64,000 nucleotides of DNA from Chthonomonadales bacterium (lineage in GTDB: Bacteria > Armatimonadota > Chthonomonadetes > Chthonomonadales > CAJBBX01). The stretch lies in contig DAIDHP010000005.1 in the NCBI GenBank assembly GCA_027459625.1, positions 1-64,000 on the forward strand, written 5' to 3'. The translations under genes were made by a program, and so were the position numbers. Below the pieces are notes generated by a model, which saw nothing but the letters and a program-made list of their open reading frames with translations, made no database searches and was not told the DNA's origin. This document shows, in pieces, positions 34,493 to 54,472 of this stretch (the first letter of the stretch is position 1; each line of letters starts with the position of its first letter).

Positions 34493-34601
34493 AGAGACTA
34501 TATGTCAACTGACATGTTAATCTGTCGTCATTATCATTGTTTTGACAGCTAATGTACGAAAACAAGTGCTGAAATAAGGTTATGTCTTTAGCACCATTTG
34601 T

Positions 34602-35183: not shown

Positions 35184-35264
35184 TATTTATATTGTCTCCT
35201 CTTCCAGTATTATATTTATATATTATTCTAAAATACTATAATGTGATATTTTGCATAATATCTA

Positions 35265-35301
35265 AATCGGCATCGAATATTAAATATATTCGACGCCGAT
35301 T
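35265..35301 (-). terminator. Hairpin after RHS tip 2
   Basis: AATCGGCATCGAATA (35265-35279) and TATTCGACGCCGATT (35287-35301) pair over 15 bases with one mismatch (wobble in RNA) around a seven-base loop. It begins 12 bases after the stop codon of tip 2. Confidence 0.5.
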
Positions 35302-35313
35302 ATAGAAACATAA

Positions 35314-36101: not shown

Positions 36102-36324
36102 CCAGCCCTATTTACACTTGACATATGGATACTCGAAATGAATACGAAACTCCATTATTTCCAGGTTACAATCATTATTAAGAAATTAATATGATGAGTG
36201 CATTCCATGTTCGGCGGCGAGAAGAGCGTTTTTGTGGGTCCTTTTGATGTCTTCCCTATGGATGCAATTGATTTGGAGCTATGATACCCGGCTATCGTTT
36301 GTATATAAAAAAAAGCGAAAACAT

Positions 36325-36846: not shown

Positions 36847-36887
36847 TTGGAAATTAATTATAGATGCAATTTGTTGATGATCGAAAA

Positions 36888-36933
36888 TTTATATATGGGA
36901 TAAAAAAATTCCTATTTCTATCCCATATATAAA
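36888..36933 (-). terminator. Hairpin between RHS tip 1 and its immunity candidate
   Basis: TTTATATATGGGATA (36888-36902) and TATCCCATATATAAA (36919-36933) are perfect 15-base arms with a 16-base loop. It lies 48 bases after the RHS stop codon and about 40 before the next start, so it could attenuate read-through or protect the transcript end. Confidence 0.6.
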
Positions 36934-36981
36934 GATAAATAATAAAAAATATTTATTTATGATTAAATGTTAAAATTCATA

Positions 36982-39900
36982 TTACCAGCGTCGCCACCAT
37001 TTCGAAAGGTAGCCAACACCATCGCCAATAACATCATGCAATTTCCCTATGCTAAGATTATCACCGATATTATGTAAAATCAATGATCTCATTGCTTGGG
37101 AAAAACCATATTCAGGTGTTTTACCTAATAAACCTCCTTCACCGAACAAATATCCTACAGTTGCAGCAGTAAAGCCATCGCCAATTGATTCCAATTGACC
37201 ATCACCTTCATATCGATCCCAAAAATACGTTGCAACTCCAGACCCTAATGCAGCTCCTAATGGATCACATCCTGTTAACCAAAATCCAATAAACGCACCA
37301 GCAGCAGGTATGATTATATTCATGGGATCATATCCTGAAGGATCCAACATATTAATCGGATTATTTGCGCAGTATATATATGCTAATTGGTTGAGGTTTA
37401 TGTCAAGTGTAAGAAAGCTTCCGGTAACCGGGTCGTAATACCTTGCGCCGACCTGCATGATCCCCACGTCCCCGTCGCAGCGGTAGCCTGACGTGGCTCC
37501 GAATTGGTAGGGGGAGGAGGTGGATCCCAATGTTGCGACGGTGTTCCCGAAGCCATCGTAAGTGGCGACTGCGGTCACAACGCCGGAGGCGTTCGTGAAG
37601 GTTCTCGCGGAGCCGAGACCGTCGTACTGGAAAAAATCCCCGTTCCTTCGGATGAGGGAAACTCCGTAAGTGTAGGTTCCGGTGAACATGCCGCCCTGCT
37701 CTTCAAGAATAACCCTGCCGCCGTCGTAGAGGGAGACGGTGGTCACCCCGCCCGCCGTGCGGCTTACCCTTCTTCCGAGGGCGTCGTAGGCGTAACCGAC
37801 AACGGACGTTCCGGTGGTTATCGACACAAGCTGGTTGTCGTAATCATACCCGAATGCCGTCGTCACCCCGTTGATCGTCTCCGAAATCCTGTCCCCGTCT
37901 GCGTCGTAAGTGTAACCGTTGTTTCCGGCGGAGAGAAGTTCGTCATCGCTGTCGTAATTATACGTTATCAGGTTACCGTTCAGCGTCTCGCTTAATCGGT
38001 TGCCCATCGCGTCGTAAGAGAAGCTCTCCGAGTAGGCGTTGGTCCCGGTTCGAACCTCCTGCGTCAACTCGTTCATCGCGTCGTAGGCGTAGGATACGAC
38101 GCTTCCGTCGGCCTCCGTAACTCCGGTGCGCATCTCGTCCGCGTTGTAGGCGTATGCGAACGAACTGAGAACCGTTCCCCCGGGCGACTTGTTCGCGACG
38201 CTCGTCAGTTCGCCGTCGGAGTTGTACGCGTTCGTAACCGCGCAGCCGTTGGGAAGGGTCTCGCCGGTTACGTGTCCGTCGCCGTCATACGAGTAGGTCG
38301 TCGATCCTGCGTTATCGGTCACTTCGCTGATCGCGTTCCGAGGCGTGTAGGAGTAGGAGATCACCCTTCCGCTCTGGTCCGTCTCGGAGGAGAGCAGACC
38401 GATCTGACCCGCACCGTCGTATGCGTAACTGATTGTCGAACCGTTCTTGCTCTCGTTCGTCATCCGGTTGTCCGCGTCGTAGGCTCTGGTCGTGGTTCCG
38501 GTTCCGTCCGCGAAGCCGGTCAGGTTGGAGTCCGCGTCGTAGGAAAAAGTGTGCGCGCTTCCGTCGGGGTAGTTGGCGGCGGTCACGCGCTCCCAGTTGT
38601 CAAGGGTGTATGTTACGAGGTTGCCCATGGCGTCGGTTTTGGACGTTCTCGTCCCCATCGCGTCGTACTGGAATCCCGTCATATTCCCCAGCGGGGTGGT
38701 GACGCTCGCGAGGTCCCCGTTGGCGTCGTAAGCGAAGCTGGTGTTGTGATTGTTCGCGTCCGTGCGAAGCGTCAGCTCGCCGTAACCGTTGTAGGTGGCG
38801 GTGGAGGAGGAGAGAACCGTCCCCGCCGAGTTCTCCTTTTGAATCTCGATCAGGTTGTCATGGGTGTCGTACGTGTTGACCGTCTTGTTCCCCATGGGGT
38901 CCGTCACCGTCAGAACCTTGTTGTGCGAGTTGTAGGTGTACGCGGTCGTCTCGCCGAGAGGGGTCTTCACGGTCAGGACGTTTCCGTTTCCGTCGTATGT
39001 GTAACTCGTCGCGTACCCGTTCGCGTCCGTCACGGATGTTTTGTTGTTATTGACGTCCCAGGCGTACGTTGTCGTGTACCCCGCAGCGTCAAGAATGGTA
39101 ATCGTTCTTCCGTTGCCGTCGTAAGTGTATGTCACGGCGTTGTTGTTCGGGTCGGTTACGGTTGTCGTCACCGGGTTGGTCGCGTAAGCGTAACTTGTCT
39201 TGTGTCCCATCGGGTCCGTTTCGCTCACGCACGCGTCCGCGCTCACAGGATACTGACTGTTGGTATTATACGCGTAATCGCTCGTCTCGCCTCGCGGATC
39301 CGTGAAGCTTGTGATGTCGTTGGTGGAGTTGTAGGTGAAACTCTCCGTGTCATACGCGCCGGACAGCGGGGGCAATGTCACGGTGGAGAGTTGCCCCGAG
39401 CCGTTGTAACCGAACGTCCAGGATCTCCCCAGGGGGTCCGTTACGCTCGTAAGTTTGTTTGACGCGTTGTAGCCGAACGTTAGCTCCCTGCCGGTCGGAT
39501 CGGTGACCAGGGTCGGGAGATTGTTCGCGTTTCGCGTGATCGTGATCGCGTTGCCGTTTTCGTCGCTGATTGACGTGCAGTAGCCCGTTCCGTTAATTGC
39601 GCTTGACGAGGAAAACCGATATGTGATCTGATTCCTGGTCGTAAGCGTGAAATAACCGTTTGCATTGTAAACGAGCGTGTCGTGGATTCCCGCAGGCGGA
39701 ACGTACGCTCCGTTGGAAAGGGTGAAAGCGTAGCCCTGATCGTCGCCCCAGTGAACGGAGGCGTTTCCGGAGCCGTCGGTAATGACGCAAATGTCATAGG
39801 TTCCCGACCACTTCGGCCCCAGTTCCGCGTTCGTGCCGCTCAGACTGCTGTGACAAATCGTGAAATCCACAGGCATCCCGCCCCTGGCGGTCCAGGAGAC

Positions 39901-40155
39901 TATCGGGATTTTCGTGCACTTGTTCCCCGTGCCTGTGTTCACGTCGGAAACGACGGTTTGCCAGTTGTATCCAGGTCCGCATACGGGACTCACCGTGTAG
40001 GGCGGAGGTCCTGAATATTTAATCATTGGTCCAAGGCTGGAAATGTTTGTTACCGCCGCGCTCGCGCTTACACCATGAACGAGACATGGCAAGGCAGCGA
40101 AGCAAAGCGTTATCGTTAATTTGATGAGTTTGAAGCATTCCTGAAATCGTGACAT
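36982..40155 (-). CDS. Full-length RHS/YD-repeat polymorphic toxin
   Basis: A 1057-residue exported RHS-type protein. Residues 1-34 are a signal peptide (LTITLCFAALPCLVHGVSASA). A DUF6531-like start follows (ARGGMPVDFTICHSS), then some twenty-five YD repeats of the form GRELTFGYNASNKLTSVTDPLG up to about 890. These build the hollow RHS shell. The core closes with GARYYDPVTGSFLTLD and DPSG at 938-941. The last 116 residues are a variable tip: glycine-rich and hydrophobic (NIIIPAAGAFIGFWLTGC, GAALGSGVATYFW), suggesting a membrane-acting effector and not a nuclease. Its size, signal peptide and lack of VgrG or PAAR partners point to a WapA-like, Sec-exported form. The core is GC-rich while the tip is AT-rich. 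Confidence 0.88.
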   Translation of the reverse strand: MSRFQECFKLIKLTITLCFAALPCLVHGVSASAAVTNISSLGPMIKYSGPPPYTVSPVCGPGYNWQTVVSDVNTGTGNKCTKIPIVSWTARGGMPVDFTICHSSLSGTNAELGPKWSGTYDICVITDGSGNASVHWGDDQGYAFTLSNGAYVPPAGIHDTLVYNANGYFTLTTRNQITYRFSSSSAINGTGYCTSISDENGNAITITRNANNLPTLVTDPTGRELTFGYNASNKLTSVTDPLGRSWTFGYNGSGQLSTVTLPPLSGAYDTESFTYNSTNDITSFTDPRGETSDYAYNTNSQYPVSADACVSETDPMGHKTSYAYATNPVTTTVTDPNNNAVTYTYDGNGRTITILDAAGYTTTYAWDVNNNKTSVTDANGYATSYTYDGNGNVLTVKTPLGETTAYTYNSHNKVLTVTDPMGNKTVNTYDTHDNLIEIQKENSAGTVLSSSTATYNGYGELTLRTDANNHNTSFAYDANGDLASVTTPLGNMTGFQYDAMGTRTSKTDAMGNLVTYTLDNWERVTAANYPDGSAHTFSYDADSNLTGFADGTGTTTRAYDADNRMTNESKNGSTISYAYDGAGQIGLLSSETDQSGRVISYSYTPRNAISEVTDNAGSTTYSYDGDGHVTGETLPNGCAVTNAYNSDGELTSVANKSPGGTVLSSFAYAYNADEMRTGVTEADGSVVSYAYDAMNELTQEVRTGTNAYSESFSYDAMGNRLSETLNGNLITYNYDSDDELLSAGNNGYTYDADGDRISETINGVTTAFGYDYDNQLVSITTGTSVVGYAYDALGRRVSRTAGGVTTVSLYDGGRVILEEQGGMFTGTYTYGVSLIRRNGDFFQYDGLGSARTFTNASGVVTAVATYDGFGNTVATLGSTSSPYQFGATSGYRCDGDVGIMQVGARYYDPVTGSFLTLDINLNQLAYIYCANNPINMLDPSGYDPMNIIIPAAGAFIGFWLTGCDPLGAALGSGVATYFWDRYEGDGQLESIGDGFTAATVGYLFGEGGLLGKTPEYGFSQAMRSLILHNIGDNLSIGKLHDVIGDGVGYLSKWWRRW

Positions 40156-40826
40156 TAACTGATCCTTTCGCCGTTCAAATCTCTTGCTTTTAACATGTTT
40201 GGGATTAAGGAATGGAACTTGGTATTACGAAAGGGCGCCGTTAGTCCTCCATGACGATGGCCATGGGGGAGCGATGTCAGGATTGGAGGCGGTCGGGATA
40301 AGCGGGGCGGGCGCAACGCGCGTCCCCCCCCCCCCGCGGTAATTAAAGAAGGGGATCACCGTATGCGAGAGATGTAATTTCCTTGCAAGCATATTCGTGT
40401 TCCTCCGGTTGGGTCGCATAGGTAACACGCGGTGCAAAAAAGGATTACATAAGGTGAATGAAACTCCTCCGCCCGTGCGTCCGGGGATGGTTCGCGCTCA
40501 TCCCTCGCGGCGGATTTTTAATGTCTGCGATAGAATAACACTTTTGATTGAGGTTGTCAATGGGTTTTATGAAAATGTTGAGAAATATTTAATCATATAA
40601 AAAGAGATTCCATTGAAGTAAATGCAAAATTTAGAAAATGAGGATATTCAAAATCTTTCTACATCAGTTGAAACATCTGTAAAACGATTAATGCACTTAC
40701 CTGCATTTACACATAGAACTTTTGTTCACGCATAATTCGTGCCGAGAATATCATTTAATATATAAAAAGAAGTGAATAATTCTTGGCGTATATATGTCAT
40801 GTATTATGAAATAATCAGCCATCTCC
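40156..40826. other. Upstream region of the RHS gene, with C12 tract
   Basis: About 670 bases. A run of twelve C (40324-40335 on the plus strand; G on the RHS-coding strand) lies 170 bases upstream of the RHS start, a possible slippage site in its promoter or leader. From 40500 on the sequence is AT-rich. A 37-codon open frame at 40622-40735 (MQNLENEDIQ...) lacks a ribosome binding site and is not called as a gene. No promoter could be placed firmly. Confidence 0.4.
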
Positions 40827-43568
40827 TCAAATATTCCTATAACACCGCTTGGGATTGGTTTTTCGAAGCCATGTGCGGTCCAAAGGTTTCACACCTTTTG
40901 TGACGGCCTCCCTCCCCTCCGGAGTGGCTAAATACTCCTCCATCTTCTCCTTGTAGAAGAGTAATTCCTTCTCCTGGGTCTCCGTCACGAAGCCGTCGCA
41001 TTGGAAATCCTCCCACAATATCCCGGGAATCCCGCCCTCTTCAATCATCGCCTGGAACCAGGGGAAGACCGGCGTAAGCACATGCATCATCGCCCCCTTC
41101 GCGGGACCGTTTACGTTGTAGGTCGTTTCGTAGTCGGTGCCATATTTCGAGTTTACAGCGATATCCCGCATATTATCAAACTGCGGTAACCAGGCGGGGA
41201 CGATCCCCCCTCGCACCCCCAAGCTCGTGATGCGCCGCAACTCCTCGGGCGAATAAGGCAGCGTGGTGTAATCGGAATGATAGGCGAGAACCTTTGATGG
41301 AATCATCTGATCAGCGGTCGCCGCCACTCGTCGTTGGCTGTAAAAGATGTGACGATAATGGGGATTCGTCTCCGAAGGTTTCACCTCCTCGATGATCGCG
41401 TTCCCCCCTTCCGTTCGCAAGAGCATCCTCGCCTGAGGAACGTTTCGATGTATCAGAGAGAGGCTGTCCCTGTAATTCCGGATTCTCAGATCGACTCTCC
41501 ATTCGTCAAAATCCGCTATCGCCTTGTCCCAATCGTGAAAGACCTTCGCAGGGTTCGTATACTCCCAGTGGTGACCGAAGATATTCACCACGCCGTCCGC
41601 CTCCGGATCAATAACATCAAAGGAGGTGTAATTGGACCCCCAAGCTGAGTTTAGCCTTCCTATCTCTCCGTATTTATCTCGCAACCAGGATCGAAAAGCC
41701 TGCTTGGAAAGCTCGCCGATGGGGAATCGGATATTCTCATCCTGACGCATCCAGCCGCGAGTGTCCTCAGTGCTGAACGGCAGAACGCCCGCCTCGAACT
41801 GTGCGCATGCGTCGCCCCACCGCTTGAACTGATACATCCAGAGGGCGACGTTCGCCTTCGCGATGTTGGGGTCGGACTGGCTGACGGCGACGTAGCCATC
41901 GCTTGGAAAGGTGTTGAGCGGAGTGGGATCTCCGGTCAATTCGTGGTAGATGTCGGCTACGCTGCTACGATCGAACGGATACGATCCCCACGCCTCGAAC
42001 TTCATGCCCATCTTTCGCGCCACATCCAGCGAGTATTTCATGGCGTCGCCGTTGTAGTTGAACTCGGGATTGTGGAAATCGTCGTAGAGCCAGGGCATGG
42101 CGGTGGTGGCGCAGACGTTCACGCCGCACTCCATCATCCGGCGGATATCCTCCTTAATGTATTGCTCGGGCCACGGGCTGACCTGAACGTTTCCGCGCAT
42201 GTCGCTCATAAGCTGCGAATAGACCACGGGTATGCGCTTGCCATCCTTGACGAGGCAGTTACCCGGATGAAGTTTCGGATGCAGTTTGATGGAGGAGTTA
42301 TCCACTTCTATCGGGGTTGCGAGGGTCTTGCAGCGGACGGGGTTCACGTCGATCAATTTGACCGTGATATCCTTCGTCCATGGCGCCACCTGCAGATAGA
42401 GGGTTCCGGATAGTGAGTTGCCCGACTCGGGAGCCTTTTGCCAGCAGTCGAAGGAGGTCATGAACTCCTCGAAGGTATGGATGTAGCGGGTTAGTTTGTC
42501 CTCCTGACCACCGTTTGTCATCGTTACCCTGATCGGCTCCACCGGAGCATTCTCAGGATTTTGCGCAACGGTTATAGGCATCTCCGCCTGATACATCCAC
42601 GCCCCGTCCCACATGTTCAGCCAGTCGTTCCAATCCCTGTAATAGCGATAGTAGGCTCTAAAATCAATTCGATATTCTCCCGGTTCAATGCGGAAGGAGT
42701 TCATATTTCCCTGCGCTGTGAAGTTGATCCAGAAGTCATGTAATTCACCGGGATAGAAATAATGGCGGTCTCGGATGTACAGATTGTAGGGGTAGCTGTG
42801 AAACTTATATTCGCCCGTTGCGTCTTTTACGTAAAGCGCTGGGTAGAGCGCCCATCCCCCCAAGCCTTCGGGAGCGAGGATGGTGTCGCCGGCGTTCGTC
42901 ACGCGGAATTTGAACCAGATAATATCCCCGCTCTCCGCCACTCCGGAACGAACCATTGGCTTGCGGGTGAACGCGGGATAAACGCCGGGATGATCGGACA
43001 TATTCGGCTTGATGTTCTGTTTCGCCCCGGGATTGACATGCGCGGTGATGGAGCCGAGATACTCCACCTTTAGGTCAAGCTTTCCGGGCAGAGCGAGGTC
43101 GAAAAGATTTCTTCCCTTCCCGCGCGATGGTTCCTCAAACGCCGTCGCCTCCACCGCCAGGGGGAACGGTCGTTCACCAGTCCAACGCACCTTGTATGGG
43201 ATGGGAATGACATCGTATCCCACTGCATTGACCGGGACGAGATAGGTGAGGGTGCAGTTATCGAGGCGGATGGTCTTGCGCTCCTTGGGGGCGTTGGCGT
43301 AGCGCAAAAGACGTTCGGAATCGTTCGCCATCCTATAGAGCGGGTTATATATGAGCCCGCCGTCGGCGTGAATCGGATAGGAGTGGATCGGGGATGGCGG
43401 GGGTACGCTCGTAAAACTACCGTGCGCTGGAATGGAATTCCGATTCATTGACGGGGATGTTGTCGCCTCCGCGTGACCGTTTCCTCCCATGAGGGCTACT
43501 CCGCCTCCCGCCGCGACAATCCTCAAGAATTTGCGTCTCGTTAGCGGCTTTCCGTTTGTATTAACCAA
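40827..43568 (-). CDS. Tat-exported beta-galactosidase-like glycoside hydrolase
   Basis: A 913-residue protein. TTG 43568 is the likely start, as AAAGGAG lies seven bases upstream. The N-terminus has a Tat signal: LTRRKFLRIVAAGGGVALMGG. About 60-340 is an all-beta region. About 440-860 is GH42-like: ERMPVVYSQL-type entry, MMECGVNVCATTAMPWLYDD, FRSWLRDKYGEIGRLNSAWGSNY (the typical GH42 helix), FDEWRVDLRIRNYRD, and a late GIPGILWEDFQCDGF strand. The last could supply a catalytic Glu. Such proteins occur widely in Armatimonadota and Planctomycetota; the substrate is unknown. It stands alone between the RHS gene and the REP field and reads leftward toward the RHS gene. Confidence 0.68.
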   Translation of the reverse strand: MVNTNGKPLTRRKFLRIVAAGGGVALMGGNGHAEATTSPSMNRNSIPAHGSFTSVPPPSPIHSYPIHADGGLIYNPLYRMANDSERLLRYANAPKERKTIRLDNCTLTYLVPVNAVGYDVIPIPYKVRWTGERPFPLAVEATAFEEPSRGKGRNLFDLALPGKLDLKVEYLGSITAHVNPGAKQNIKPNMSDHPGVYPAFTRKPMVRSGVAESGDIIWFKFRVTNAGDTILAPEGLGGWALYPALYVKDATGEYKFHSYPYNLYIRDRHYFYPGELHDFWINFTAQGNMNSFRIEPGEYRIDFRAYYRYYRDWNDWLNMWDGAWMYQAEMPITVAQNPENAPVEPIRVTMTNGGQEDKLTRYIHTFEEFMTSFDCWQKAPESGNSLSGTLYLQVAPWTKDITVKLIDVNPVRCKTLATPIEVDNSSIKLHPKLHPGNCLVKDGKRIPVVYSQLMSDMRGNVQVSPWPEQYIKEDIRRMMECGVNVCATTAMPWLYDDFHNPEFNYNGDAMKYSLDVARKMGMKFEAWGSYPFDRSSVADIYHELTGDPTPLNTFPSDGYVAVSQSDPNIAKANVALWMYQFKRWGDACAQFEAGVLPFSTEDTRGWMRQDENIRFPIGELSKQAFRSWLRDKYGEIGRLNSAWGSNYTSFDVIDPEADGVVNIFGHHWEYTNPAKVFHDWDKAIADFDEWRVDLRIRNYRDSLSLIHRNVPQARMLLRTEGGNAIIEEVKPSETNPHYRHIFYSQRRVAATADQMIPSKVLAYHSDYTTLPYSPEELRRITSLGVRGGIVPAWLPQFDNMRDIAVNSKYGTDYETTYNVNGPAKGAMMHVLTPVFPWFQAMIEEGGIPGILWEDFQCDGFVTETQEKELLFYKEKMEEYLATPEGREAVTKGVKPLDRTWLRKTNPKRCYRNI

Positions 43569-43793
43569 CCTATCGCTCCTTTGTAGGAATATCCGCGATG
43601 GAGTGTCCTTTACAGCCGGAAATTCCCCATAACATTAACACATAATACCTGATACGGATTTGAGGCGTACGGGAAATACAATTTTATGTTTTGATGAAAA
43701 TGCATACAGTTTATGAGTATCGCCATTCCCCCCAAAATATGAATACATGTCCCACCGCATTCCCGCATGGCTTTCGTATTTTGCACAGCCCAT

Positions 43794-44080
43794 ATCACAC
43801 CGCACGATGTTCCGCCGCATTTGTAGGGGCGATCCCTTGTGGTCGCCCGCAATCCCGGTAACCGAAACAACCATCATATCCCGCACAACGCAGGGTTTGC
43901 GGCATATTCAAAAAACGGGAAATTAAACATATACCGATAAACAAACGATTTCGCCAACCGATCACACCGCACAATGTTCCGCCGCATTTGTAGGGGCGAT
44001 CCCTTGTGGTCGCCCGCAATCCCGGCAAACGAAACAACCATCGAATCACGCGTCATACCCGGTTTGCGCGGCATTCAAAA
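43794..44080. repeat. Tandem pair of 120-base REP-containing units
   Basis: 43794-43913 and 43961-44080 are near-identical direct repeats with a 167-base period. Each contains the palindromic REP core GGGGCGATCCCTTGTGG followed by TCGCCCGC (cores at about 43825 and 43992). Similar but more degenerate copies lie to the right of the transposase gene. The interval 43569-43793 shows no gene. Confidence 0.8.
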
Positions 44081-44134
44081 CGGATAACGACATCCCGCGC
44101 CGCAACACAAACAATTTCGGGTGCACGCAGCATT

Positions 44135-44157
44135 GCGGGCGACCACAAAGGTCGCCT
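44135..44157. repeat. REP palindrome, inverted orientation
   Basis: GCGGGCGACCACAAAGG followed by TCGCCT is the reverse complement of the REP core with minor changes. It lies 120 bases before the RAYT gene and faces the forward copies to its left, as in paired REP (BIME-like) arrays. Confidence 0.75.
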
Positions 44158-44278
44158 AGATATTTCAAAATCGTTAATCGAGTTAATGCGAATGCGTTTA
44201 ATATGCGCACTGGCTATTAAAAATTGGCGGAGACGTATTTTTATATGTGAATTTGAATGCGACGGGAGGCAAATAAAC

Positions 44279-44776
44279 ATGGAGAGCGAAAGAACCAGCA
44301 GACGCTCCATTCGGTTGACTGAATATGATTATTCCTTGGCTGGGATGTATTTCGTAACCGTGGTCGCCCAATTAAAACTATGCTTGTTTGGTCATGTTAC
44401 AAATGAGAAGATGGTACTGAATGACGCAGGCAACATGATCATGAATTCATTGCTGGAAATTCCTAACAGGTACCCATACGTAGTCTGTGATGTGTTTATA
44501 GTGATGCCCAATCATCTACACGGCATTCTTTGTTTTGAAAACGAATATCCGGAAAAGCCATTAAGCCTGGTAATTGGATCGTTCAAATCCTTGACGACAG
44601 TATCATACATCCATGGGGTTGAACAATATAAATGGGATGTATTTCAGAAGCGTCTCTGGCAACGAAATTATTATGAACACATCATCCGTAACGAGGAATC
44701 ACTAAACAATATTCGCGATTATATCTTATACAACCCCACCCATTGGAACACCGATACTGATAATCCACTCCTGTAG
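44279..44776 (+). CDS. REP-associated tyrosine transposase (RAYT, Y1/HUH family)
   Basis: A 165-residue Y1-type HUH nuclease related to IS200/IS605 transposases. ATG 44279 is fixed by GGGAGGC upstream. VFIVMPNHLHGI near 72-83 holds the HxH metal site (His79, His81), and LWQRNYYEHIIRNEE near 127-140 carries the catalytic tyrosine (Tyr131 or Tyr132). It opens YSLAGMYFVTVVAQ, as usual for RAYTs. The gene is embedded in REP palindromes, and its TAG stop lies inside a REP copy (44772-44808). RAYTs bind and cut REP hairpins as single strands and are thought to spread them. The gene looks intact, so the element may be active. Confidence 0.85.
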   Translation: MESERTSRRSIRLTEYDYSLAGMYFVTVVAQLKLCLFGHVTNEKMVLNDAGNMIMNSLLEIPNRYPYVVCDVFIVMPNHLHGILCFENEYPEKPLSLVIGSFKSLTTVSYIHGVEQYKWDVFQKRLWQRNYYEHIIRNEESLNNIRDYILYNPTHWNTDTDNPLL

Positions 44777-44808
44777 GGGCGATCCCTTGTGGTCGCCCGC
44801 AAGCCCGG
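44772..44808. repeat. REP palindrome overlapping the RAYT stop codon
   Basis: TGTAGGGGCGATCCCTTGTG followed by GTCGCCCGCAAGCCCGG. The first bases supply the TAG stop of the transposase gene. Confidence 0.85.
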
Positions 44809-44914
44809 CGAATAAAACAGCCATCGAATCACGCACCACATCCGCATAGCCACGCATCCAAAACCGGAAACGGCGCACCTGCCGTTAAACTAACAATTTC
44901 GGAAACCGATACCC

Positions 44915-45098
44915 TGCGGGCGACCACAAGGGATCGCCCCTACGGAGGAATTTACCAAACCCCGGCTTACGAAACAGCCATCGAAACACGCACCACGTTG
45001 GATTAACAACACAGCCAAACCCCGGTAACGCAACAATCCCCCGCCTCTCGAACAATAACGGACACCGTTACGATGCAGGCGACCACGAGGGTCGCCCA
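44915..45098. repeat. Two inverted-orientation REP copies
   Basis: 44915-44944 (TGCGGGCGACCACAAGGG...) and 45077-45098 (AGGCGACCACGAGGGTCGCC) are reverse-orientation REP cores. The sequence between and around them (44809-45239) repeats degenerate pieces of the 120-base unit, such as CAGCCATCGAA.CACGCACCAC. It holds no gene. Confidence 0.75.
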
Positions 45099-45239
45099 TA
45101 GAGAAGTATCAACCAAACCGCGTGAAACGGGTAAGATATAATCCAATCCGAACTGGCGCCCCATTGGGCGGCTATTTCCGATGCCGTTCGTTTCATCGCG
45201 AATTCAAACCGCAATCATTAACTTTCCATAGAGTGAGTC

Positions 45240-47450
45240 ATGAAATTTGTGATCCCGTATCTACTTATCACCGTATGTCTTTTCGCCTGCATATTAACCG
45301 CCGTAGGAGCCACAACACCCCCGAGCGGTTTGGTTTTGCATCTGGACGCCTCGCACCTGGCTTCAGGACCTCTAATGACTTGGACAGATACGTCGGGCAA
45401 GGGAAACGACGTAAGCCAGTCCGATCCCGCTTGTCAACCTTTCGTTCGCGCGAAGGAGCTGAACGGGAAACCCGCCGTCGTGTTCTCCGGAAACCAATAT
45501 CTGGACGGCGCCGCAGTCCTACCGGAGGGTGTGAAATCGTTCACCTACGTGGTCGTATGGAAACGAGACGCAACGGGAGGGAGCCAGACGATCGTGGAGC
45601 AGGCGGCGGAGGGGGTTGGGAGGAGGGCGTGCCTGCTCACCACCGATTACGCTTACGGCTACAACGGCGAGTTCAACGATCAGCACGGGCTGATGCCCTA
45701 CACTCCCGGCAAGTTCGCGGTGACGGTCCTTCGCATGTTCGACGACGGAATCATCAGCGTCACCCACAACGGCGCGACCAGGAAGGGCGTGATCAATATC
45801 CGCACGCGAAACATCGGCGCTGTGAAGGAGCGCGTGGGCGGGAAGATATACGGGCTCGAACGCTTGAAGGGCGCCATCGCGGAGATTATGGTATACGATC
45901 ACACGCTGAGTGACACGCAAGTGCAAGATATCAGTCGTGAATTAGGAAGGAAATGGGGGATTGCCATGGATTCAAGAGACCCGGTCATTGTATCCTACGA
46001 GAAAATGATACGCGAAAATGAGAGGAACAAGGAGCGCTACACGGAGACGTACCGTCCTCAGTTCCATTTCACGCCGATATCCGGATGGATGAACGATCCC
46101 AACGGTTTGTGTTATTTCAACGGCGAGTGGCACATGTTTTATCAAACGCTATACCTCATTGATGAGCAAAGCTGGGGGCACGCCGTGAGCCGCGATCTGG
46201 TGCACTGGACTCATCTGCCGCCGGCGATCCTTCCCGACGAGAAGGGGGCGATTTGGTCAGGAAGTGCGGTGGTGGATTCAAAGGACTCCAGCGGATTGTT
46301 TCACGGCAAGCCGGGGATGGTGTGCATCTTCACCTACATGAACCCGGGCGAGGGCGGTCGGCAATCGCAGGGAATGGCGTACAGCCCGGACGGAATCCAC
46401 TTCACAAAGTACGCTCATAACCCGATTATCCCCCAGCTTCGTTACCAGCCCGGTCAACCGGATGACGCCGACTTCCGGGACCCCAAGGTGTTCTGGTACG
46501 CGCCGGACAAAAAGTGGATGATGATCACCGGGGGCGGAACGGTGCGGTTCTATTCCTCGCCGAATCTGCGCGATTGGAAGTTTGAGAGCATCAACGAGGG
46601 AATCAACACGGAGTGCCCAGACTTTTTCGAGCTTCCCGCGGATGGCGACAAATCCAATAGCAGGTGGGTGTTGAACGGCGCGGGGGACTGGTATATCCTC
46701 GGAGATTTCAACGGCAAGGTGTTCACTCCGAAAAGCGATCGCATCCGGATCAATTACGGCAACGATTTTTACGCCTCGCAAACGTGGAGCGATACGCCGG
46801 ACGGCAGGAGGATCATGATAGGCTGGATGTATAAATGGGGCTACACCGGCGATCTTCCCGCGCCTCTCAGCAACGGCGGCATGATGACGATCCCCACGGT
46901 CTTAAGCCTGAAAACCACATCGAAGGGGGTGCGTCTATTCCAGACCCCCATCCATGAGCTCCGGGAGCTGCGCGAAAAGCCCTTCGAAATGTCGAACAAG
47001 ACGTTCGGACCGGACGATCCTCCCCCCATTGATCTCAGAGGAAAATGCCTTGAGATCGTGGCGGAGTTCCAAAACGAGGGCTCGAAGGAGTTTGGGATAC
47101 GCGTTCGAACGGACACCGAGGGCGATCAGACCACTGCGGGATACGACGCGAAGGATCAGCAAATATTCGTGGATCGCAGGAAATCCGGGTATTCAAAAAT
47201 CAACAACTTCGCAAACATTTACAAGGCTCCTTTGCAGCCGGAAAACGGCGTCATCAAGATGCATATCTTCGTCGATTGGTCCTCGATAGAGCTTTTCGCA
47301 AACTACGGCAGGAGGGTCATCACCTGCGATCTCTTGCCGCCCCCCACGGCGGATGGCTTGGAGCTTTACTCGACAGGCGGCAAGGTGAAGTTGGTGTCGT
47401 TAAAGATATATCCGTTAAAGTCCATCTGGCGAAGCGATTCGAACCCGTAG
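45240..47450 (+). CDS. Secreted GH32 fructan hydrolase with N-terminal LamG domain
   Basis: A 736-residue exported enzyme. Residues 1-24 are a signal peptide (LLITVCLFACILTAVGA). About 25-240 form a LamG/concanavalin-like domain (LVLHLDAS, MVYDHTLSDTQVQDISRELG). GH32 follows at about 265-570: SGWMNDPNGL with the nucleophile Asp286, DADFRDPKVFW with the transition-state Asp414, and NTECPDFFEL with the acid/base Glu458. A C-terminal beta-sandwich ends in DWSSIELFANYG. These motifs mark levanases, inulinases and invertases; exo- versus endo-action cannot be told. A binding module at the N-terminus is unusual for simple invertases and favours a polymeric substrate. The start has only a weak ribosome binding site. 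Confidence 0.92.
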   Translation: MKFVIPYLLITVCLFACILTAVGATTPPSGLVLHLDASHLASGPLMTWTDTSGKGNDVSQSDPACQPFVRAKELNGKPAVVFSGNQYLDGAAVLPEGVKSFTYVVVWKRDATGGSQTIVEQAAEGVGRRACLLTTDYAYGYNGEFNDQHGLMPYTPGKFAVTVLRMFDDGIISVTHNGATRKGVINIRTRNIGAVKERVGGKIYGLERLKGAIAEIMVYDHTLSDTQVQDISRELGRKWGIAMDSRDPVIVSYEKMIRENERNKERYTETYRPQFHFTPISGWMNDPNGLCYFNGEWHMFYQTLYLIDEQSWGHAVSRDLVHWTHLPPAILPDEKGAIWSGSAVVDSKDSSGLFHGKPGMVCIFTYMNPGEGGRQSQGMAYSPDGIHFTKYAHNPIIPQLRYQPGQPDDADFRDPKVFWYAPDKKWMMITGGGTVRFYSSPNLRDWKFESINEGINTECPDFFELPADGDKSNSRWVLNGAGDWYILGDFNGKVFTPKSDRIRINYGNDFYASQTWSDTPDGRRIMIGWMYKWGYTGDLPAPLSNGGMMTIPTVLSLKTTSKGVRLFQTPIHELRELREKPFEMSNKTFGPDDPPPIDLRGKCLEIVAEFQNEGSKEFGIRVRTDTEGDQTTAGYDAKDQQIFVDRRKSGYSKINNFANIYKAPLQPENGVIKMHIFVDWSSIELFANYGRRVITCDLLPPPTADGLELYSTGGKVKLVSLKIYPLKSIWRSDSNP

Positions 47451-47461
47451 ACTCTCCGGGA

Positions 47462-48850
47462 TTATTGCGCCCTGCCCCCCGGCGGGATTCGGCACAGACG
47501 GCTGAGCGGGACATCCCCCGTCTCCAGCAACCATCTCTCAATCCTGGATCGCATCCCGAAAAGCGTCTCACGAAACTCCTTCAACGGGGCGAGGTTCCTC
47601 GTTTCCAGGGCATCTTCGCTCATATTGTAAAGTTCATCCTGGTCCGCCAGATACCAGTTGTATTTCCATCTTTCGGTGCGGACGCTGAGAATTGGACAGG
47701 AGCATCCGTACGCCTCCCATATCTCCGCGAAGACCGCGTCCCGGTGGTTGTCGGAGTGATCCCACAAGGCTCGCATCGACCTTCCCTGCATGCATGCAGG
47801 CTGGGGAACGCCCATTAAATCCAGCAAGGTGGGGACGATGTCCACCGCGCTGCTTAGCCAGGATACGCGGCGACCCGCTGGAATTCGCCCCGTCCAGCGA
47901 ATTACGCAGGGGATACGGTTCGATCCCTCGTACATGAACAACCCTTTAGCGAACAGCCCGTGCTCGCCCATCATGTCGCCATGATCCGCCATGAACACCA
48001 CGATCGTATCCCCCGCGAGGGATAAGTCGTCAAGACATTGCAGAACCCGCCCCACATTCGTATCCACGAGATGCACCAGTCCCCAATAGCGAGCGATGAT
48101 GCGCCGCAACTCCTCCACGTCATATGCGGCGGGGTCGCTTCCAATCCACCGATGAAACCAATCCCTCGGCGCCCCTCGGAGTTGCGCATGGGGTTTGTCG
48201 TGAAAATCCTCCCGAAACGTAGGCGGTAGGGGAACATCCGCTGGGTCGTAAAGATCATTGAAAGGTCCCGTATACGGATCGTGCGGCGCTCGCATGGAGC
48301 AGATGACCACAAACGGCTCCTCGCGTCGCTCTTCAATGAATTCGATGGTTTTCGTGGCGACCACGGTATCATGCGCAAGTTCGAAGGGAACCAACCCGCG
48401 CTGGGAACCTCTGTCGGTGTCCTTCGGGAAGACGAAACCGGATTCCTCCAGCGATTGCTCGTAACTTCCTCGCAAGTGAGTCCACCAGCCATCGGTGAAG
48501 CCATGCTGCGCCACGTTCTCCCGCCCCACGTGCCACTTGCCGAAGTACCCGCAGCGATATCCCGCAGCTTTCGCCGCGTCGCCGAAGGTGAGCGCGTCAT
48601 CCGCCATGGCAACGGAGCGATCGTCGTCATTCACCATCACTCCGTTGCAGTGGGGATATCGGGAGGACCAGATGCTACCGCGACTGGGCACGCACAACGG
48701 CGCACTCACATAATGACGCTCGAAAAGCGCCCCTTCCGAAGCCAGGCGGTCGATGTGGGGCGTTCGTATGATGGAGTTACCGTAACACCCCAGGGTGTTG
48801 GTGTTCTGCTGATCCGTCATGATGAAGACAACGTTCGGCTTTTTGCTCAT
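47462..48850 (-). CDS. Type I sulfatase
   Basis: A 462-residue arylsulfatase-superfamily enzyme. ATG 48850 is used because GAGGA lies upstream, and the protein then begins with the family's first strand, KKPNVVFIMTDQQ. The formylglycine motif is APLCVPSRGS, with Cys53 to be converted in CxPSR; YPHCNGV follows. VVFMADHGDMMGEHGLFAKG is the second metal-site block. No signal peptide is present, so it is either cytoplasmic or exported in another way. It needs a formylglycine-generating enzyme, not seen in the window. It converges on the GH32 gene with 11 bases between stops. It may act on sulfated sugars freed by the secreted glycosidases. Confidence 0.9.
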   Translation of the reverse strand: MSKKPNVVFIMTDQQNTNTLGCYGNSIIRTPHIDRLASEGALFERHYVSAPLCVPSRGSIWSSRYPHCNGVMVNDDDRSVAMADDALTFGDAAKAAGYRCGYFGKWHVGRENVAQHGFTDGWWTHLRGSYEQSLEESGFVFPKDTDRGSQRGLVPFELAHDTVVATKTIEFIEERREEPFVVICSMRAPHDPYTGPFNDLYDPADVPLPPTFREDFHDKPHAQLRGAPRDWFHRWIGSDPAAYDVEELRRIIARYWGLVHLVDTNVGRVLQCLDDLSLAGDTIVVFMADHGDMMGEHGLFAKGLFMYEGSNRIPCVIRWTGRIPAGRRVSWLSSAVDIVPTLLDLMGVPQPACMQGRSMRALWDHSDNHRDAVFAEIWEAYGCSCPILSVRTERWKYNWYLADQDELYNMSEDALETRNLAPLKEFRETLFGMRSRIERWLLETGDVPLSRLCRIPPGGRAQ

Positions 48851-48989
48851 GATTTTCCTCGGAGACAATCGTTTACGGCGAAAAATTGCATCTGTTTGTA
48901 TTTTATCCTTAAACACTTGCTTTTCTCCTGCTTTTTGGCGGTAATGTTTTGATATACCATGACGATTCTTTGCAGTAACGGAGGGTGAG

Positions 48990-49706
48990 ATGACCGAATT
49001 GGAGCGCGTCTTGCCGGGTGTCGAGGTGTCTTACGCCCCATGGGGCAAGGCTTATGTCATAACAAGCTCTCTAAAGAGCTACGTTCCGGACGCGAAGAGC
49101 CTTGAAATGGAGATCGCATCCGGCTTGGAGAGCTTTCCCTCCGATAGAATTGTAGCTTGGCTAAATAAGTACGAGGAGATTCGTTCAAGCGACATCATGT
49201 TTTTCGACTTGGAGACTTGCGGATTGGCATACGAGCCCATCTTCCTCAGCGGGATCCTCATTGAAGAAGAGGGGGAGTTTTTCATTCGTCAGTTTCTCGC
49301 CCGCGATTTTGACGAGGAATCCGCGATCCTTGCCATGACTTTGATGATGATGGATACGAAAAAGCTGCTCGTTACGTTCAACGGGAAGAGCTTTGACGTG
49401 CCCTATCTCTTAAGAAGATCCGACGCCGGCGATATTCCCGTTGGCGGGATGCCAGCTCACTTGGATATGCTGCACATCGCGAAGCGGCATTGGGCGAAAA
49501 ATCTTCCAAACTGCCAATTAATCACACTGGAATCGCATCTATTAAACCGTCACAGGGAGGGGGATATCCCGGGCTCGCGGATTCCGGCGGCGTACCATCG
49601 TTTTGTGCGCACGGGAAATCCGTCCGAATTGACACGCATCATCTATCACAACGCGTTTGACCTCATCACTCTTGCGCAACTCACCGCGCTTTATGCAAAA
49701 TCCTGA
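48990..49706 (+). CDS. RNase H-like (YprB-type) exonuclease-domain protein
   Basis: A 238-residue protein with the RNase_H_2 / YprB fold: IMFFDLETCGL near 67-77 (first acidic pair DxE), LVTFNGKSFDVPYL near 128-141 with the second Asp, LDMLHIAKRHW near 155-165, and YHNAFDLITLAQL near 221-233 with the last Asp. These are the four acidic blocks of DnaQ-related exonucleases. The substrate is unknown; relatives are often fused to TPR segments. GGAGGGTGAG precedes ATG 48990. It is divergent from the sulfatase, and 203 bases upstream of parA. Confidence 0.82.
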   Translation: MTELERVLPGVEVSYAPWGKAYVITSSLKSYVPDAKSLEMEIASGLESFPSDRIVAWLNKYEEIRSSDIMFFDLETCGLAYEPIFLSGILIEEEGEFFIRQFLARDFDEESAILAMTLMMMDTKKLLVTFNGKSFDVPYLLRRSDAGDIPVGGMPAHLDMLHIAKRHWAKNLPNCQLITLESHLLNRHREGDIPGSRIPAAYHRFVRTGNPSELTRIIYHNAFDLITLAQLTALYAKS

Positions 49707-49909
49707 CACGCGGTTTTTTTGGGGATGGTATCAACTCTGCTTCAAACACGGCGGCGAACTCTCGCAACCATTCCCGCTTTGACGGTAAACTAATGGAGGC
49801 GAATGCAAAAATGGAACTCCGTGTGTTTGGAGAATCCATTTTCAACTGGGATTCACTGCAAGCAACCAACTTTCGCAATTGCCAACCTGTTTACATAGGG
49901 GATATTCAA

Positions 49910-50770
49910 ATGGGTTTGATCTATTCCGTAGTCAATCAAAAGGGAGGTGTCGGCAAAACGACCACGGCGGTCAATCTTTCCGCTTGTCTTGCGGATGCTG
50001 GCAAGCGTGTCCTCCTGATTGACTCCGATCCTCAGGGAAATGCATCCGGAGGATTGGGAGTGGACAAGCACTCCATCGGCGCGGATGGCAGTGTTGCACC
50101 GTACTCCACCTATGATATCCTCGTCAACAACCGACCGATTTCCGAAGCGCATGTGCAAACCTGCGTGGAGAGATTAAGTCTTGTTCCCGCAAACATGGAC
50201 TTGGCGGGAGCGGAAGTGGAACTCACATCCAACGAGGGGTGGGAATTTACGCTTGGCAACTCCTTGAGAGAGGCGAGGGATGAGTTCGACTTCATCCTCA
50301 TAGATTCACCACCTTCCCTTGGTGCGCTTACGGTTAACGCATTGGTCGCGTCGGATTACGGGATAATCCCCATTCAGTGCGAGTATTATGCCTTGGAGGG
50401 GGTGAGCCAGTTGATGAAGACCGTTCAATTGGTGCAAAAAAGGTTAAACCCATCCTTTGAGATCGGTCTGGTGATCCTGACGATGTACGACAATCGCATC
50501 CGCCTGGCGCGGGATGTGGTGTCGGAGGTGAGGAGCACCTTTGCGGGGAGGGTGTCCGCCACAATCATTCCGAGAAACGTCCGTCTTTCCGAGGCTCCAA
50601 GCCATGGAAAGCCGGTTACGCTTTACGATCCAAAATCCACCGGAGCGAAGGCGTATCGAGAAATCGCAAAAGAGGTGATGGCGAATGGAAAAAAGAGGGC
50701 TGGGGAAGGGGTTGGGAGCGCTCATCGCGGACAACCTTTCCGAGGATTGTTCAAGCGTACAGGAGATTAA
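49910..50770 (+). CDS. parA: Chromosome-partitioning ATPase ParA/Soj
   Basis: A 286-residue deviant Walker ATPase. ATG 49910 is chosen because AGGGGAT lies upstream and the protein then begins with YSVVNQKGGVGKTTTAVNLS (signature Lys11, P-loop Lys16). The frame is open back to 49793, but that part has no ParA homology. VLLIDSDPQGN is the Walker A' Asp, and FDFILIDSPPSLG Walker B. It works with ParB-parS in segregating the chromosome origin region. Its last 29 codons overlap the start of parB in another frame; the C-terminus (GEGVGSAHRGQPFRGLFKRT) therefore is not family-like and results from the overlap. Confidence 0.93.
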   Translation: MGLIYSVVNQKGGVGKTTTAVNLSACLADAGKRVLLIDSDPQGNASGGLGVDKHSIGADGSVAPYSTYDILVNNRPISEAHVQTCVERLSLVPANMDLAGAEVELTSNEGWEFTLGNSLREARDEFDFILIDSPPSLGALTVNALVASDYGIIPIQCEYYALEGVSQLMKTVQLVQKRLNPSFEIGLVILTMYDNRIRLARDVVSEVRSTFAGRVSATIIPRNVRLSEAPSHGKPVTLYDPKSTGAKAYREIAKEVMANGKKRAGEGVGSAHRGQPFRGLFKRTGD

Positions 50771-51554
50771 CGTCGCGAGGATTCAGGCGAATCCATTTCA
50801 GCCGCGGCAGGATTTCAACGAGGAGAGACTTGCGGAGCTAACCGATTCGATCCGAGAGCATGGAATTCTGCAGCCCATTCTCATGCGGCGCGTCGGCATG
50901 GATCACTACGAAATCATCGCGGGCGAACGGCGCTACCGTGCCGCATGCAAGCTTGGACTGAAGACCGTGCCCGCCATTGTGCGAGAGTGCGTGGACGGCC
51001 AGGCGCTGGAAATCGCGCTTATCGAGAACGTGCAGCGGGAGGATATCAACGTTTTGGAGGCGGCTCAAGCCTATAAGAGGTTGATTGACGAATTCGGGAT
51101 GACGCAATCGGAAGTCGCAAAGCGCGTTGGCAAATCCCAGCCATCCATAGCCAACGCATTGCGGCTGCTCTTCCTTCCCGATCCGATACTCACCTCCCTT
51201 TACAGCGGGGAGATCACGGAAGGCCATGCGCGCTGCCTGCTGTCGCTGGAGGGTGCGGCTCAATTATCCGCATTCCAGCGTATCGTGCGCGACAAGCTAT
51301 CCGTGAGAGATGCGGAGAGGCTTGTGAAAAACGCAAAATCCACAGAAGAGATCAAACCTTCCGCGATGAGGAAAGCCGATCCCCCCGTCAATCCTAATCT
51401 GACATATCTGGAGGACCAACTGCAGGTCGCGCTTGGCACGCGCGTACGAATACGTCCCAACGGCAACGGGGGGAGAATTGAGATCGAATATTTTTCCGAG
51501 GAGGAACTGGAGGGGGTTTTTCAAAAAATAGTCGGCGAGGAGGCGAAGTTTTGA
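50685..51554 (+). CDS. parB: Chromosome-partitioning protein ParB/Spo0J
   Basis: A 289-residue ParB. The start RGLGKGLGALIADN is the usual N-terminal ParA-interacting motif and confirms ATG 50685, deep inside parA. ANPFQPRQDF and GERRYRAACKLG form the CTPase/ParB core, followed by the helix-turn-helix TQSEVAKRVGKSQPSIANALRLL that binds parS. The C-terminal part (LTYLEDQLQVALGTRVRI) is the dimerisation strand. An 18-base parS-like palindrome lies 470 bases downstream of the gene. The stop overlaps the TTG start of the NUDIX gene. Confidence 0.95.
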   Translation: MEKRGLGKGLGALIADNLSEDCSSVQEINVARIQANPFQPRQDFNEERLAELTDSIREHGILQPILMRRVGMDHYEIIAGERRYRAACKLGLKTVPAIVRECVDGQALEIALIENVQREDINVLEAAQAYKRLIDEFGMTQSEVAKRVGKSQPSIANALRLLFLPDPILTSLYSGEITEGHARCLLSLEGAAQLSAFQRIVRDKLSVRDAERLVKNAKSTEEIKPSAMRKADPPVNPNLTYLEDQLQVALGTRVRIRPNGNGGRIEIEYFSEEELEGVFQKIVGEEAKF

Positions 51555-52027
51555 AGGAGGAACGTTTTTATTACGACGATCCCGATGCTCCAAAACCCAA
51601 TGTTCCTCTCCAGCCTGGCGTTGCCGCGATCCTGTTTGACGACCGCGACAGGATTCTTATCCTGAAACGCACCAAGGGGCCCTATTGGTGCATCCCGGGC
51701 GGAAGAATGGAGATTGGGGAATCCGCGCAGGAGTGTTGCGTCCGAGAGACGGAGGAGGAGACCGGGTTGAAGACCGCGGTGAAAAAGCTGATCGGCCTTT
51801 ACACCAATCCTCGCAGCATCTGCTCCTACCCCGACGGCAACGTACACCAAAGCTTCATTGCGCTCTTTCTCTGCGAGATCATCGGCGGATTGATGCGCGA
51901 GAGCGAAGAGACCACCCGTTTCCATTGGATGAGCCGTAAGGAGTTGGATCGATACCTTCTTCTCCCGGACAACGTCCTCTGCTGCAAGGACGCATGGGAG
52001 CATCGTGATGATGCATTCATACGCTAG
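51551..52027 (+). CDS. NUDIX hydrolase
   Basis: A 158-residue NUDIX pyrophosphatase. The NUDIX box GGRMEIGESAQECCVRETEEE..G is complete (Gx5Ex7REUxEExGU). TTG 51551 is the likely start: GAGGAGG lies eight bases upstream and the codon overlaps the parB stop, so translation is coupled. The substrate (nucleoside diphosphate derivative) cannot be predicted. Its stop codon touches the parS palindrome. Confidence 0.9.
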   Translation: MKEERFYYDDPDAPKPNVPLQPGVAAILFDDRDRILILKRTKGPYWCIPGGRMEIGESAQECCVRETEEETGLKTAVKKLIGLYTNPRSICSYPDGNVHQSFIALFLCEIIGGLMRESEETTRFHWMSRKELDRYLLLPDNVLCCKDAWEHRDDAFIR

Positions 52028-52044
52028 TATTTCACGTGAAATAC
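52027..52044. promoter_or_regulatory. parS: parS centromere site
   Basis: GTATTTCACGTGAAATAC is a perfect 18-base palindrome. Its core TTTCACGTGAAA is identical to the canonical bacterial parS (TGTTTCACGTGAAACA); only the flanking pair differs (A/T for G/C). It lies just downstream of parAB-nudix, the expected place. No second copy was seen in the window. Confidence 0.88.
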
Positions 52045-52206
52045 TTCGGGTTGATGTCGTTTGAACACACGGACATGACTGCCAAATAGTTTCCCGCTGT
52101 CCGTATGTGCTAAGAGTTCGCCGGGAAGGCGGACCGGGATTTCGGTGAGACATTTGTATCCTGTTTTTGTTCCACGCGGACTCGCGTAGGAAGGAGATAC
52201 GGCGAC

Positions 52207-53865: not shown

Positions 53866-54472
53866 AGAAGGAGTCGTTGCGGAAAAAAGCCCGCCCACTC
53901 CCACCATTTCGCATAATTCGTGCGAACACCCGTCTCACACCCGCCATTAATTGCGTTGCGTATTTGGATGCTTTACCACACCAACCATCATTCATGCAAT
54001 GCATTCTCATGTGCGCATTACAACACCTGCCATCATGGGCACACGTATTCGCATGTGCGCCTTCTCAAGCCCGCTATCAACGAAAATTTCGTAGGGGCGA
54101 CCCTTGTGGTCGCCCGCACCCAGGTATCAATTACCCCAACATGTTGCGTTGTTCGATGCATGTTTCATTACCGATACGCTGCGGGCGACCACAAGGGTCG
54201 CCCCTACGGACACACGCAAGGTATCAATTACCCAACATGTTGCGTTATTCGATGCATATTTCATTACCGATACGTTGAGGCCGACCACAAGGGTCGCCCC
54301 TACATATGGATTTCCGCGATGTTCATTTACCTATGCATTTGAAAGCAACATGAATATGTATATATTAGATTCACCTCACACAAATTCATAATGCGGTGGT
54401 ATAATTGGTTCAATAGTATGAATTATCAACCGTTCGCAACTCCTTCCATGATGTCATCAATGGAGATATGAA
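53866..54472. repeat. REP cluster with tandem 86-base unit upstream of the pseudopilin gene
   Basis: A forward REP core lies at 54090-54117, and reverse cores at 54181-54207 and 54276-54303. The last two end a direct repeat, 54122-54207 and 54219-54303 (AGGTATCAATTACCC start). The forward/reverse pair is a BIME-like arrangement. No transposase lies here; the RAYT at 44279 could act in trans. TATAAT at 54400-54405 is a plausible -10 box for the pseudopilin gene, though the -35 box is poor. The interval 53866-54089 holds no gene. Confidence 0.75.

What the first reader, a model, noticed from the sequence alone, without database searches (positions are those of the whole stretch)
43794..45098. 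RAYT transposase nested in its REP field, with the stop codon inside a REP
An intact Y1/HUH transposase gene is flanked by forward and reverse REP palindromes and by 120-base tandem units. The TAG stop of the gene is part of a REP copy, so gene and repeat are physically joined. This suggests a self-contained source locus for the repeats seen elsewhere.
Basis: partly seen in the sequence, partly recalled or inferred. Interest (0 to 1): 0.55.

Follow-up and report, generated by a model that had tools for sequence, protein, structure and literature searches.

The report
RAYT transposase gene among its repeats
A bacterial gene for a small DNA-cutting enzyme sits among copies of the short hairpin repeat it probably spreads, and one repeat supplies the gene's stop codon; this is a known kind of arrangement, seen here in a little-studied lineage whose sister species carries a broken version of the gene at a different place.

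Summary
Window 44279-44776 encodes an intact 165-aa Y1/HUH transposase of the RAYT (TnpA-REP) kind. Four identical 26-nt GTAG hairpins plus two decayed ones surround it, and the GTAG of the 3' copy supplies the TAG stop. The repeat unit is a ~171-bp REPIN, not a 120-bp tandem.

It is the only RAYT found in its 4.5-Mb genome, which has 47 exact REP cores. Of 291 genomes of the phylum, the four with two or more exact cores all have RAYT genes, one broken. A stop inside a REP is not unique: 9 of 79 related RAYTs and 9 of 376 neighbouring ORFs show it, and it is in print for REPs in general. Verdict: a new member of a known kind.

Extra: the sister species has a broken RAYT about 10 kb away, at the place of the window's second REP array, and collinearity with it breaks at the edge of the RAYT array. 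Third-position divergence (45% against 21%) favours two old copies with reciprocal loss, or fast evolution, over a recent jump.

The parts
44279..44776 (+). RAYT (TnpA-REP) gene, 165 aa, HUH motif MPNHLH (residues 76-81), WQ 127-128, Y148 in YILYNP; stop TAG 44774-44776
44773..44798 (+). REP whose GTAG (44773-44776) contains the RAYT stop codon; left end of the downstream REPIN
44773..44943 (.). downstream REPIN, 171 bp: REP, spacer, inverted REP, GTAG ends outward
44918..44943 (-). inverted REP, right end of the downstream REPIN
43990..44161 (.). upstream REPIN, 172 bp; left REP intact (43990-44015), right REP decayed (44137-44161)
43823..43848 (+). outer upstream REP, in the first copy of a 167-bp local duplication (43794-43913 repeats at 43961-44080, 86%)
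45074..45099 (-). decayed outer downstream REP; collinearity with the sister species starts at its outer edge (45096)
54091..54303 (.). second REP array (REPs at 54091+, 54207-, 54303-), at the place orthologous to the RAYT of the sister species

Best explanation
The locus is a REPtron: a single RAYT gene, closest to Corneloup subclass 2.4 (Bertels group 4), standing between two REPINs of its own cognate family. By homology the protein, as a Y1 HUH nuclease, binds the single-stranded GTAG hairpin and cuts near it using Y148, and so mobilises REPs or REPINs in trans over evolutionary time (inferred, not shown). The REP at the 3' end lies so close to the gene that its GTAG supplies the stop codon; that is a known way for a GTAG REP to abut a gene and needs no special mechanism. 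Shown: gene, motifs, predicted fold, REP structure, single RAYT, genome-wide REP family, co-occurrence with RAYT. Inferred: binding, cleavage, mobilisation.
For: RAYT family hits; nearest solved relative by sequence 4ER8, E. coli TnpA-REP; AlphaFold model mean pLDDT 88 with Foldseek top hit 4ER8, E 3.2e-7. GTAG plus hairpin in ssDNA. 47 exact cores, 1 RAYT. In 80 related loci a GTAG hairpin lies in the gene or within 600 nt of it in 76 of 80, GTAGGGGC-type in 75, against 13 and 8 of 103 equal windows about 3 kb away and 4 and 0 of 80 crude shuffles. Codon-position substitutions 35:28:74 between this RAYT and the sister's indicate past protein-level selection. The sister with a broken RAYT has 10 exact cores against 47 and fewer REPs with GTAG and stem intact (p=0.003 on conservative denominators, 40 of 57 against 4 of 15). 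Literature, passages seen: GTAG REPs often provide the stop codon of flanking ORFs (PMC3733652); REPs lie very close to or immediately downstream of rayt stops (PMC2817692).
Against: The NCBIfam score is below its curated cut-off. Subclass motifs fit imperfectly (NHLH for NH[IFV]H, YILYNP for YIxNNP; Table 1 of PMC6006769). 63 of 80 relatives carry a GTAG hairpin inside the gene; this one has none. The nearest intact REPs on either side point the same way; only the decayed upstream copy makes the flanking pair inverted. The share of exact cores among places at up to 1 mismatch does not differ between the sister and this genome (10 of 15 against 47 of 57, p=0.28).
Confidence: 0.92

Rival explanations
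1. The RAYT with its 3' REP is itself a mobile cassette that changed site: it stands at about 44.3 kb here and, in the sister species, at the place orthologous to about 54.1 kb.
For: Contig C115 of the sister is collinear with window 45096-58212; its RAYT lies between the equivalents of 53886 and 54412, and the equivalent of 45096 has neither RAYT nor REP. DNA similarity between the two RAYT loci covers only the gene and the 3' REP region (window 44297-44810, 44297-44796).
Against: The two RAYTs differ at 74 of 166 third positions against 726 of 3379 in eight flanking ORFs; leaving out one ORF that is probably not a gene, 712 of 3169, and against the most diverged flanking gene 187 of 588, p=0.003. 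That is a lot for a move after the species split unless RAYTs evolve much faster. No second copy or remnant was found in either genome. Both genomes are drafts, and several REPs lie at contig ends.
Confidence: 0.2
2. Two old RAYT copies, one at each site, existed in the ancestor of the genus and each species kept one (reciprocal loss), or one was replaced by horizontal transfer.
For: Excess third-position divergence. The sister's RAYT is followed by a spacer that matches the 54-kb array of the window, not the spacer behind the window's own RAYT.
Against: No remnant of the other copy at either site; the fast evolution reported for rayt genes (PMC2817692 abstract) could explain the divergence.
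Confidence: 0.5
3. The REP hairpin that starts at the stop codon is a built-in brake on RAYT translation: ribosomes stall at the hairpin before the stop, so RAYT output is limited by its own repeat.
For: The hairpin starts directly after the TAG. PMC12306157 (passage) cites work in which REPs less than 16 nt from a stop reduce translation. Stop-in-REP is commoner in related RAYTs (9 of 79) than in neighbouring ORFs (9 of 376; Fisher p=0.0012).
Against: 70 of 79 scored relatives do not have the stop in a strict REP hairpin. The RNA fold around the stop is not exceptional (z -0.9, 38 of 200 shuffles as good). RAYT loci are rich in REPs, so the enrichment may only reflect proximity.
Confidence: 0.15

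Closest known systems
REPtron (RAYT/TnpA-REP with flanking GTAG REPs), E. coli and Stenotrophomonas type
   Same: Y1 transposase gene beside REPs with a GTAG foot and an imperfect hairpin; REP family dispersed in the genome; REP at the 3' end of the gene.
   Different: More distant protein; REPs here form REPINs on both sides rather than one simple inverted pair; cleavage not tested.
TnpA-REP subclass 2.4 (Corneloup 2018, PMC6006769; passages and Table 1 seen) = RAYT group 4 (Bertels)
   Same: WQ motif; long REPs with GTAG and a G-C-rich stem base (GTAGGGGC...GCCC); relatives scattered over many phyla with REPs inside the gene, as described for this subclass.
   Different: No REP inside this gene, although 63 of 80 relatives have one; HUH and Y motifs each differ by one residue from the published consensus.
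GTAG-tagged REP families (Di Nocera 2013, PMC3733652; passages seen)
   Same: The GTAG end supplies the TAG stop of neighbouring genes.
   Different: A text search of the paper for GTAGGGGCG and GGGCGA found nothing; supplements were not read.

Membership tests
RAYT / TnpA-REP | Y1_Tnp domain with HUH and catalytic Tyr | tested here: met
   Pfam above cut-off; N78 H79 W127 Q128 Y148 invariant in 40 sequences, H81 at least 90%
RAYT / TnpA-REP | Fold of TnpA-REP | tested here: met
   Foldseek top hit 4ER8, E 3.2e-7, TM 0.59; IS608 and ISDra2 transposases follow closely, so the fold alone does not separate RAYT from IS200
RAYT / TnpA-REP | NCBIfam REP_Tyr_transpos above the curated cut-off | tested here: not met
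   70.7 bits against 80; the IS200 model is far lower, 23.2 against 55. I do not count a model's cut-off as a biological defining feature
RAYT / TnpA-REP | Flanked by REPs with a 5' GTAG/GTGG foot and hairpin, inverted | tested here: met
   the inverted nearest partner upstream is a decayed copy
RAYT / TnpA-REP | REP over-represented in the host genome | tested here: met
   57 places at up to 1 mismatch against 0 for the reversed control
RAYT / TnpA-REP | Cleaves single-stranded REP DNA | not testable with these tools
   needs purified protein
TnpA-REP subclass 2.4 | NH[IFV]H, WQ, YIxNNP motifs | tested here: inconclusive
   NHLH, WQ, YILYNP; the authors' HMM was not available
TnpA-REP subclass 2.4 | REP inserted within the gene (frequent, not universal) | tested here: not met
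   none in the window gene; present in 63 of 80 relatives
REPIN | Two inverted REPs around a spacer, GTAG ends outward, dispersed as a unit | tested here: met
   full-length matches of 73-84% at other places of this genome and 75-77% at two places of the sister

The most novel reading that the evidence does not exclude
RAYT genes in this lineage are mobile as a gene-plus-3'-REP cassette that moves between REPIN arrays, with the stop codon inside the REP marking the cassette's end, and such arrays act as rearrangement breakpoints.
Probability: 0.15. Interest if true: 0.55.

Novelty: new member of a known kind. Interest (0 to 1): 0.3.

Why it matters
It adds a well-formed REPtron in a phylum that no call names, and a natural pair of congeneric species, one with an intact RAYT and many REPs, one with a broken RAYT and fewer. 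More genomes of this genus would make it testable whether RAYT keeps REPs alive and whether RAYT genes themselves move.

Tried and rejected
Rejected: '120-base tandem units' as the basic unit (REPINs of about 171 bp fit better). Rejected: the longer GTG-start ORF 44006-44776, because ATG 44279 has a Shine-Dalgarno-like site and the protein alignment of five relatives begins there (their own starts were set by me). Rejected: stop-in-REP as unique to RAYT (9 of 376 neighbouring ORFs; in this genome an ORF of about 494 codons on contig C3 also ends in a REP). Weakened: a simple recent move of the RAYT (third positions).

Weak points of my own counts. Spacer identities were computed without turning units into one orientation, so the low values between groups there are partly an artefact; one search replaces them. 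The REP scoring used stretches that cover all 47 exact places of this genome and 3 further loci, missed 2 exact places (C26:946, C32:45889) and decayed copies in the window (45074, 54279), and left out 3 one-mismatch places that were not fetched (two on C2, one on C6); the sister's 15 places were all fetched. That favours this genome in the 40-of-50 against 4-of-16 comparison, hence the conservative recount. In one search frames were picked by script and at least L180 was read past internal stops; by eye some loci counted as 'none' (L108, L131, L136, L176, L184) look like decayed stop-in-REP cases. The 376 control ORFs are mechanical ORFs of at least 150 aa, not checked genes. One of the eight flanking ORFs (51524-52153) has a codon pattern that suggests a wrong frame. 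The shuffles moved dinucleotide blocks only. An exact scan of viral contigs found the 25-mer in 5 stretches and was not followed.

Full report
Observation. The region 43794-45098 holds one intact gene and a REP array. The gene (44279-44776, 165 aa) scores as a Y1 transposase and, below the curated cut-off, as a REP-associated tyrosine transposase. PDB sequence searches match 4ER8, the E. coli TnpA-REP (in one search a second, unrelated chain at E 0.96), and the AlphaFold model (mean pLDDT 88) has 4ER8 as its best Foldseek hit, with IS608 and ISDra2 transposases close behind. Four REPs are identical over 26 nt (43823+, 43990+, 44773+, 44943-) and two inverted copies are decayed (about 44137-44161 and 45074-45099).

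Unit. REPs pair head-outward into REPINs of about 171 bp (43990-44161 and 44773-44943), and the gene sits between two of them. The downstream REPIN matches full REPINs elsewhere in this genome at 84% (contig C61), 77% (C39, two copies, and C32) and 73% (C19), and a partial one at the end of C40 at 91% over 139 columns (24 stretches compared). In the sister species it matches at 75-77% over its full length at two places.

Genome scale. The genome (4.55 Mb, 114 contigs) has one RAYT by the NCBIfam model. The REP core occurs 47 times exactly, 57 times with up to one mismatch against 0 for the reversed control, and 68 times with up to two against 10. Several exact copies lie within about 300 bases of a contig end, so the count is probably a lower bound. 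Of 42 REPs with GTAG that were scored, 4 end an open frame with at least 100 codons from a start codon: the RAYT, one of about 494 codons that reaches the end of the fetched stretch, one of 150, and one of 104 that reads through repeats.

Co-occurrence. In 291 genomes of the phylum the exact core occurs in 6: this one (47), G219 (47), the sister G001 (10), G004 (2), G160 (1) and G256 (1). RAYT hits exist in all of these except G160; the hit in G001 is a broken gene. In the 61-genome sample at up to 1 mismatch, the 8 genomes with five or more places all have a RAYT hit (in one of them, G047, the control also reaches 5 against 11), while 20 of the 61 genomes have no RAYT hit; the highest count among those 20 is 3, in G038, with a control of 2. 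The pattern is tuned to this genome, so other REP types are not tested.

Relatives. 80 related loci were fetched (the search kept the best 80 of at least 541), from organisms named as Chloroflexi, Bacteroidetes, Deltaproteobacteria, Planctomycetota, Omnitrophota and others. A GTAG hairpin lies in the gene or within 600 nt of it in 76 of 80, and 75 of 80 have one starting GTAGGGGC, against 13 and 8 of 103 equal windows about 3 kb away and 4 and 0 of 80 crude shuffles. In 63 of 80 such a hairpin lies inside the matched gene stretch, and 43 of 80 have a facing pair inside it, as published for subclass 2.4 (PMC6006769, passages). The window gene has none. The exact core of the window's REP occurs in 5 of the 80 loci: a Dyadobacter, another Bacteroidetes MAG, a Chloroflexi MAG, a Prevotellaceae MAG and an Omnitrophica MAG, in or near the RAYT, whose proteins are 39-43% identical to the window's.

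Stop codon. Of 79 relatives with a stop in the locus, 9 have it in the GTAG of a strict hairpin, 11 have a REP nearby and 59 neither. Among 376 other ORFs of at least 150 aa in the same loci 9 end likewise; the odds ratio is 5.2, p=0.0012. The trait is enriched at RAYTs but not special to them. PMC3733652 states that GTAG REPs often provide the stop codon of flanking ORFs (the paper calls TAG opal), and PMC2817692 that REPs lie very close to or immediately downstream of rayt stops, with four cases of a rayt 3' end inside a BIME. I saw passages only.

Sister species. Contig C115 of G001 is collinear with window 45096-58212 in three blocks at 85-90% identity. Its RAYT is broken (one base missing relative to the window gene and a TAG inside) and ends at a TAG in a decayed REP with CTAG instead of GTAG. 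It lies where the window has only the 54-kb REP array. The place matching 45096 has no REP or RAYT, and collinearity stops at the outer edge of the last REP; the left side of the sister's junction matches contig C40 of this genome (88%), whose end also runs into a REP array. Window 28.3-43.8 kb has only scattered partial matches in G001 (G001 is 92% complete). A REPIN of G001 is missing at the orthologous place 57171-57318. The two RAYTs differ at 137 of 497 aligned sites, by codon position 35:28:74. Third positions differ at 74 of 166 (45%) against 726 of 3379 (21%) in eight flanking ORFs, 712 of 3169 without a doubtful one, and 187 of 588 (32%) in the most diverged flanking gene, p=0.003. 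I read this as two old copies with reciprocal loss, or fast evolution; a recent jump is less likely but not excluded. Draft assembly at repeats is a caveat, although the array here runs through unique sequence at both junctions.

REP decay. With a broken RAYT the sister has fewer exact cores (10 against 47; it is 4.0 Mb in 250 contigs) and fewer copies with GTAG and stem intact (4 of 16 against 40 of 50 scored, p=1e-4). My choice of stretches favours this genome there; with all places at up to one mismatch as denominators it is 4 of 15 against 40 of 57, p=0.003, and the share of exact cores alone does not differ (10 of 15 against 47 of 57, p=0.28). This agrees with RAYT-dependent upkeep, but weakly and from one pair of species.

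Mechanism. In studied RAYTs the GTAG acts in recognition and, in part, as the guide for cleavage-site choice, and CT is the common cleavage site (PMC8266576, passages). I infer the same here. Whether the REP at the stop slows RAYT translation is open; the RNA fold around the stop is not exceptional against shuffles.

Verdict. An ordinary but clear REPtron in a little-studied lineage; new member of a known kind. I saw no report of RAYT relocation between congeners in the listings and passages seen, which is a weak search; [quoted passage not shown] Mending the REP-decay and REPIN-similarity counts did not change my scores.

Noticed in passing
window 53886-54412 against L071 (G001 contig C115): The sister species carries its broken RAYT at the place of the window's 54-kb REP array.
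   Followed up: yes
window 45096; L071; L082: Collinearity with the sister breaks at the outer edge of the RAYT/REP array; the sister's left neighbour is on contig C40 here, which ends in a REP array whose unit is 91% alike to the window's downstream REPIN.
   Followed up: partly
window 28300-43790: About 15 kb with only scattered matches in the sister; it holds a methyltransferase next to an SBF-family transporter (these look like arsenic genes, from recall), a large RHS-like protein (36982-40155, from recall) and a second partial copy of part of it (35314-36096).
   Followed up: no
window 57171-57318: The sister has a REPIN here; the window has a GTAG-less hairpin with a similar stem (57208-57228), perhaps a terminator.
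   Followed up: partly
L206-L212 (genome G219, another family of the phylum): 47 exact copies of the same REP core, in the 7 stretches read as compact REPINs of about 85 bp, in a genome with several RAYT hits; one RAYT (L199) also ends in a GTAG hairpin.
   Followed up: partly
window 54473-55282: A prepilin-type protein with [24 protein letters not shown] near its start, from recall typical of Armatimonadota; no call names the host phylum.
   Followed up: no
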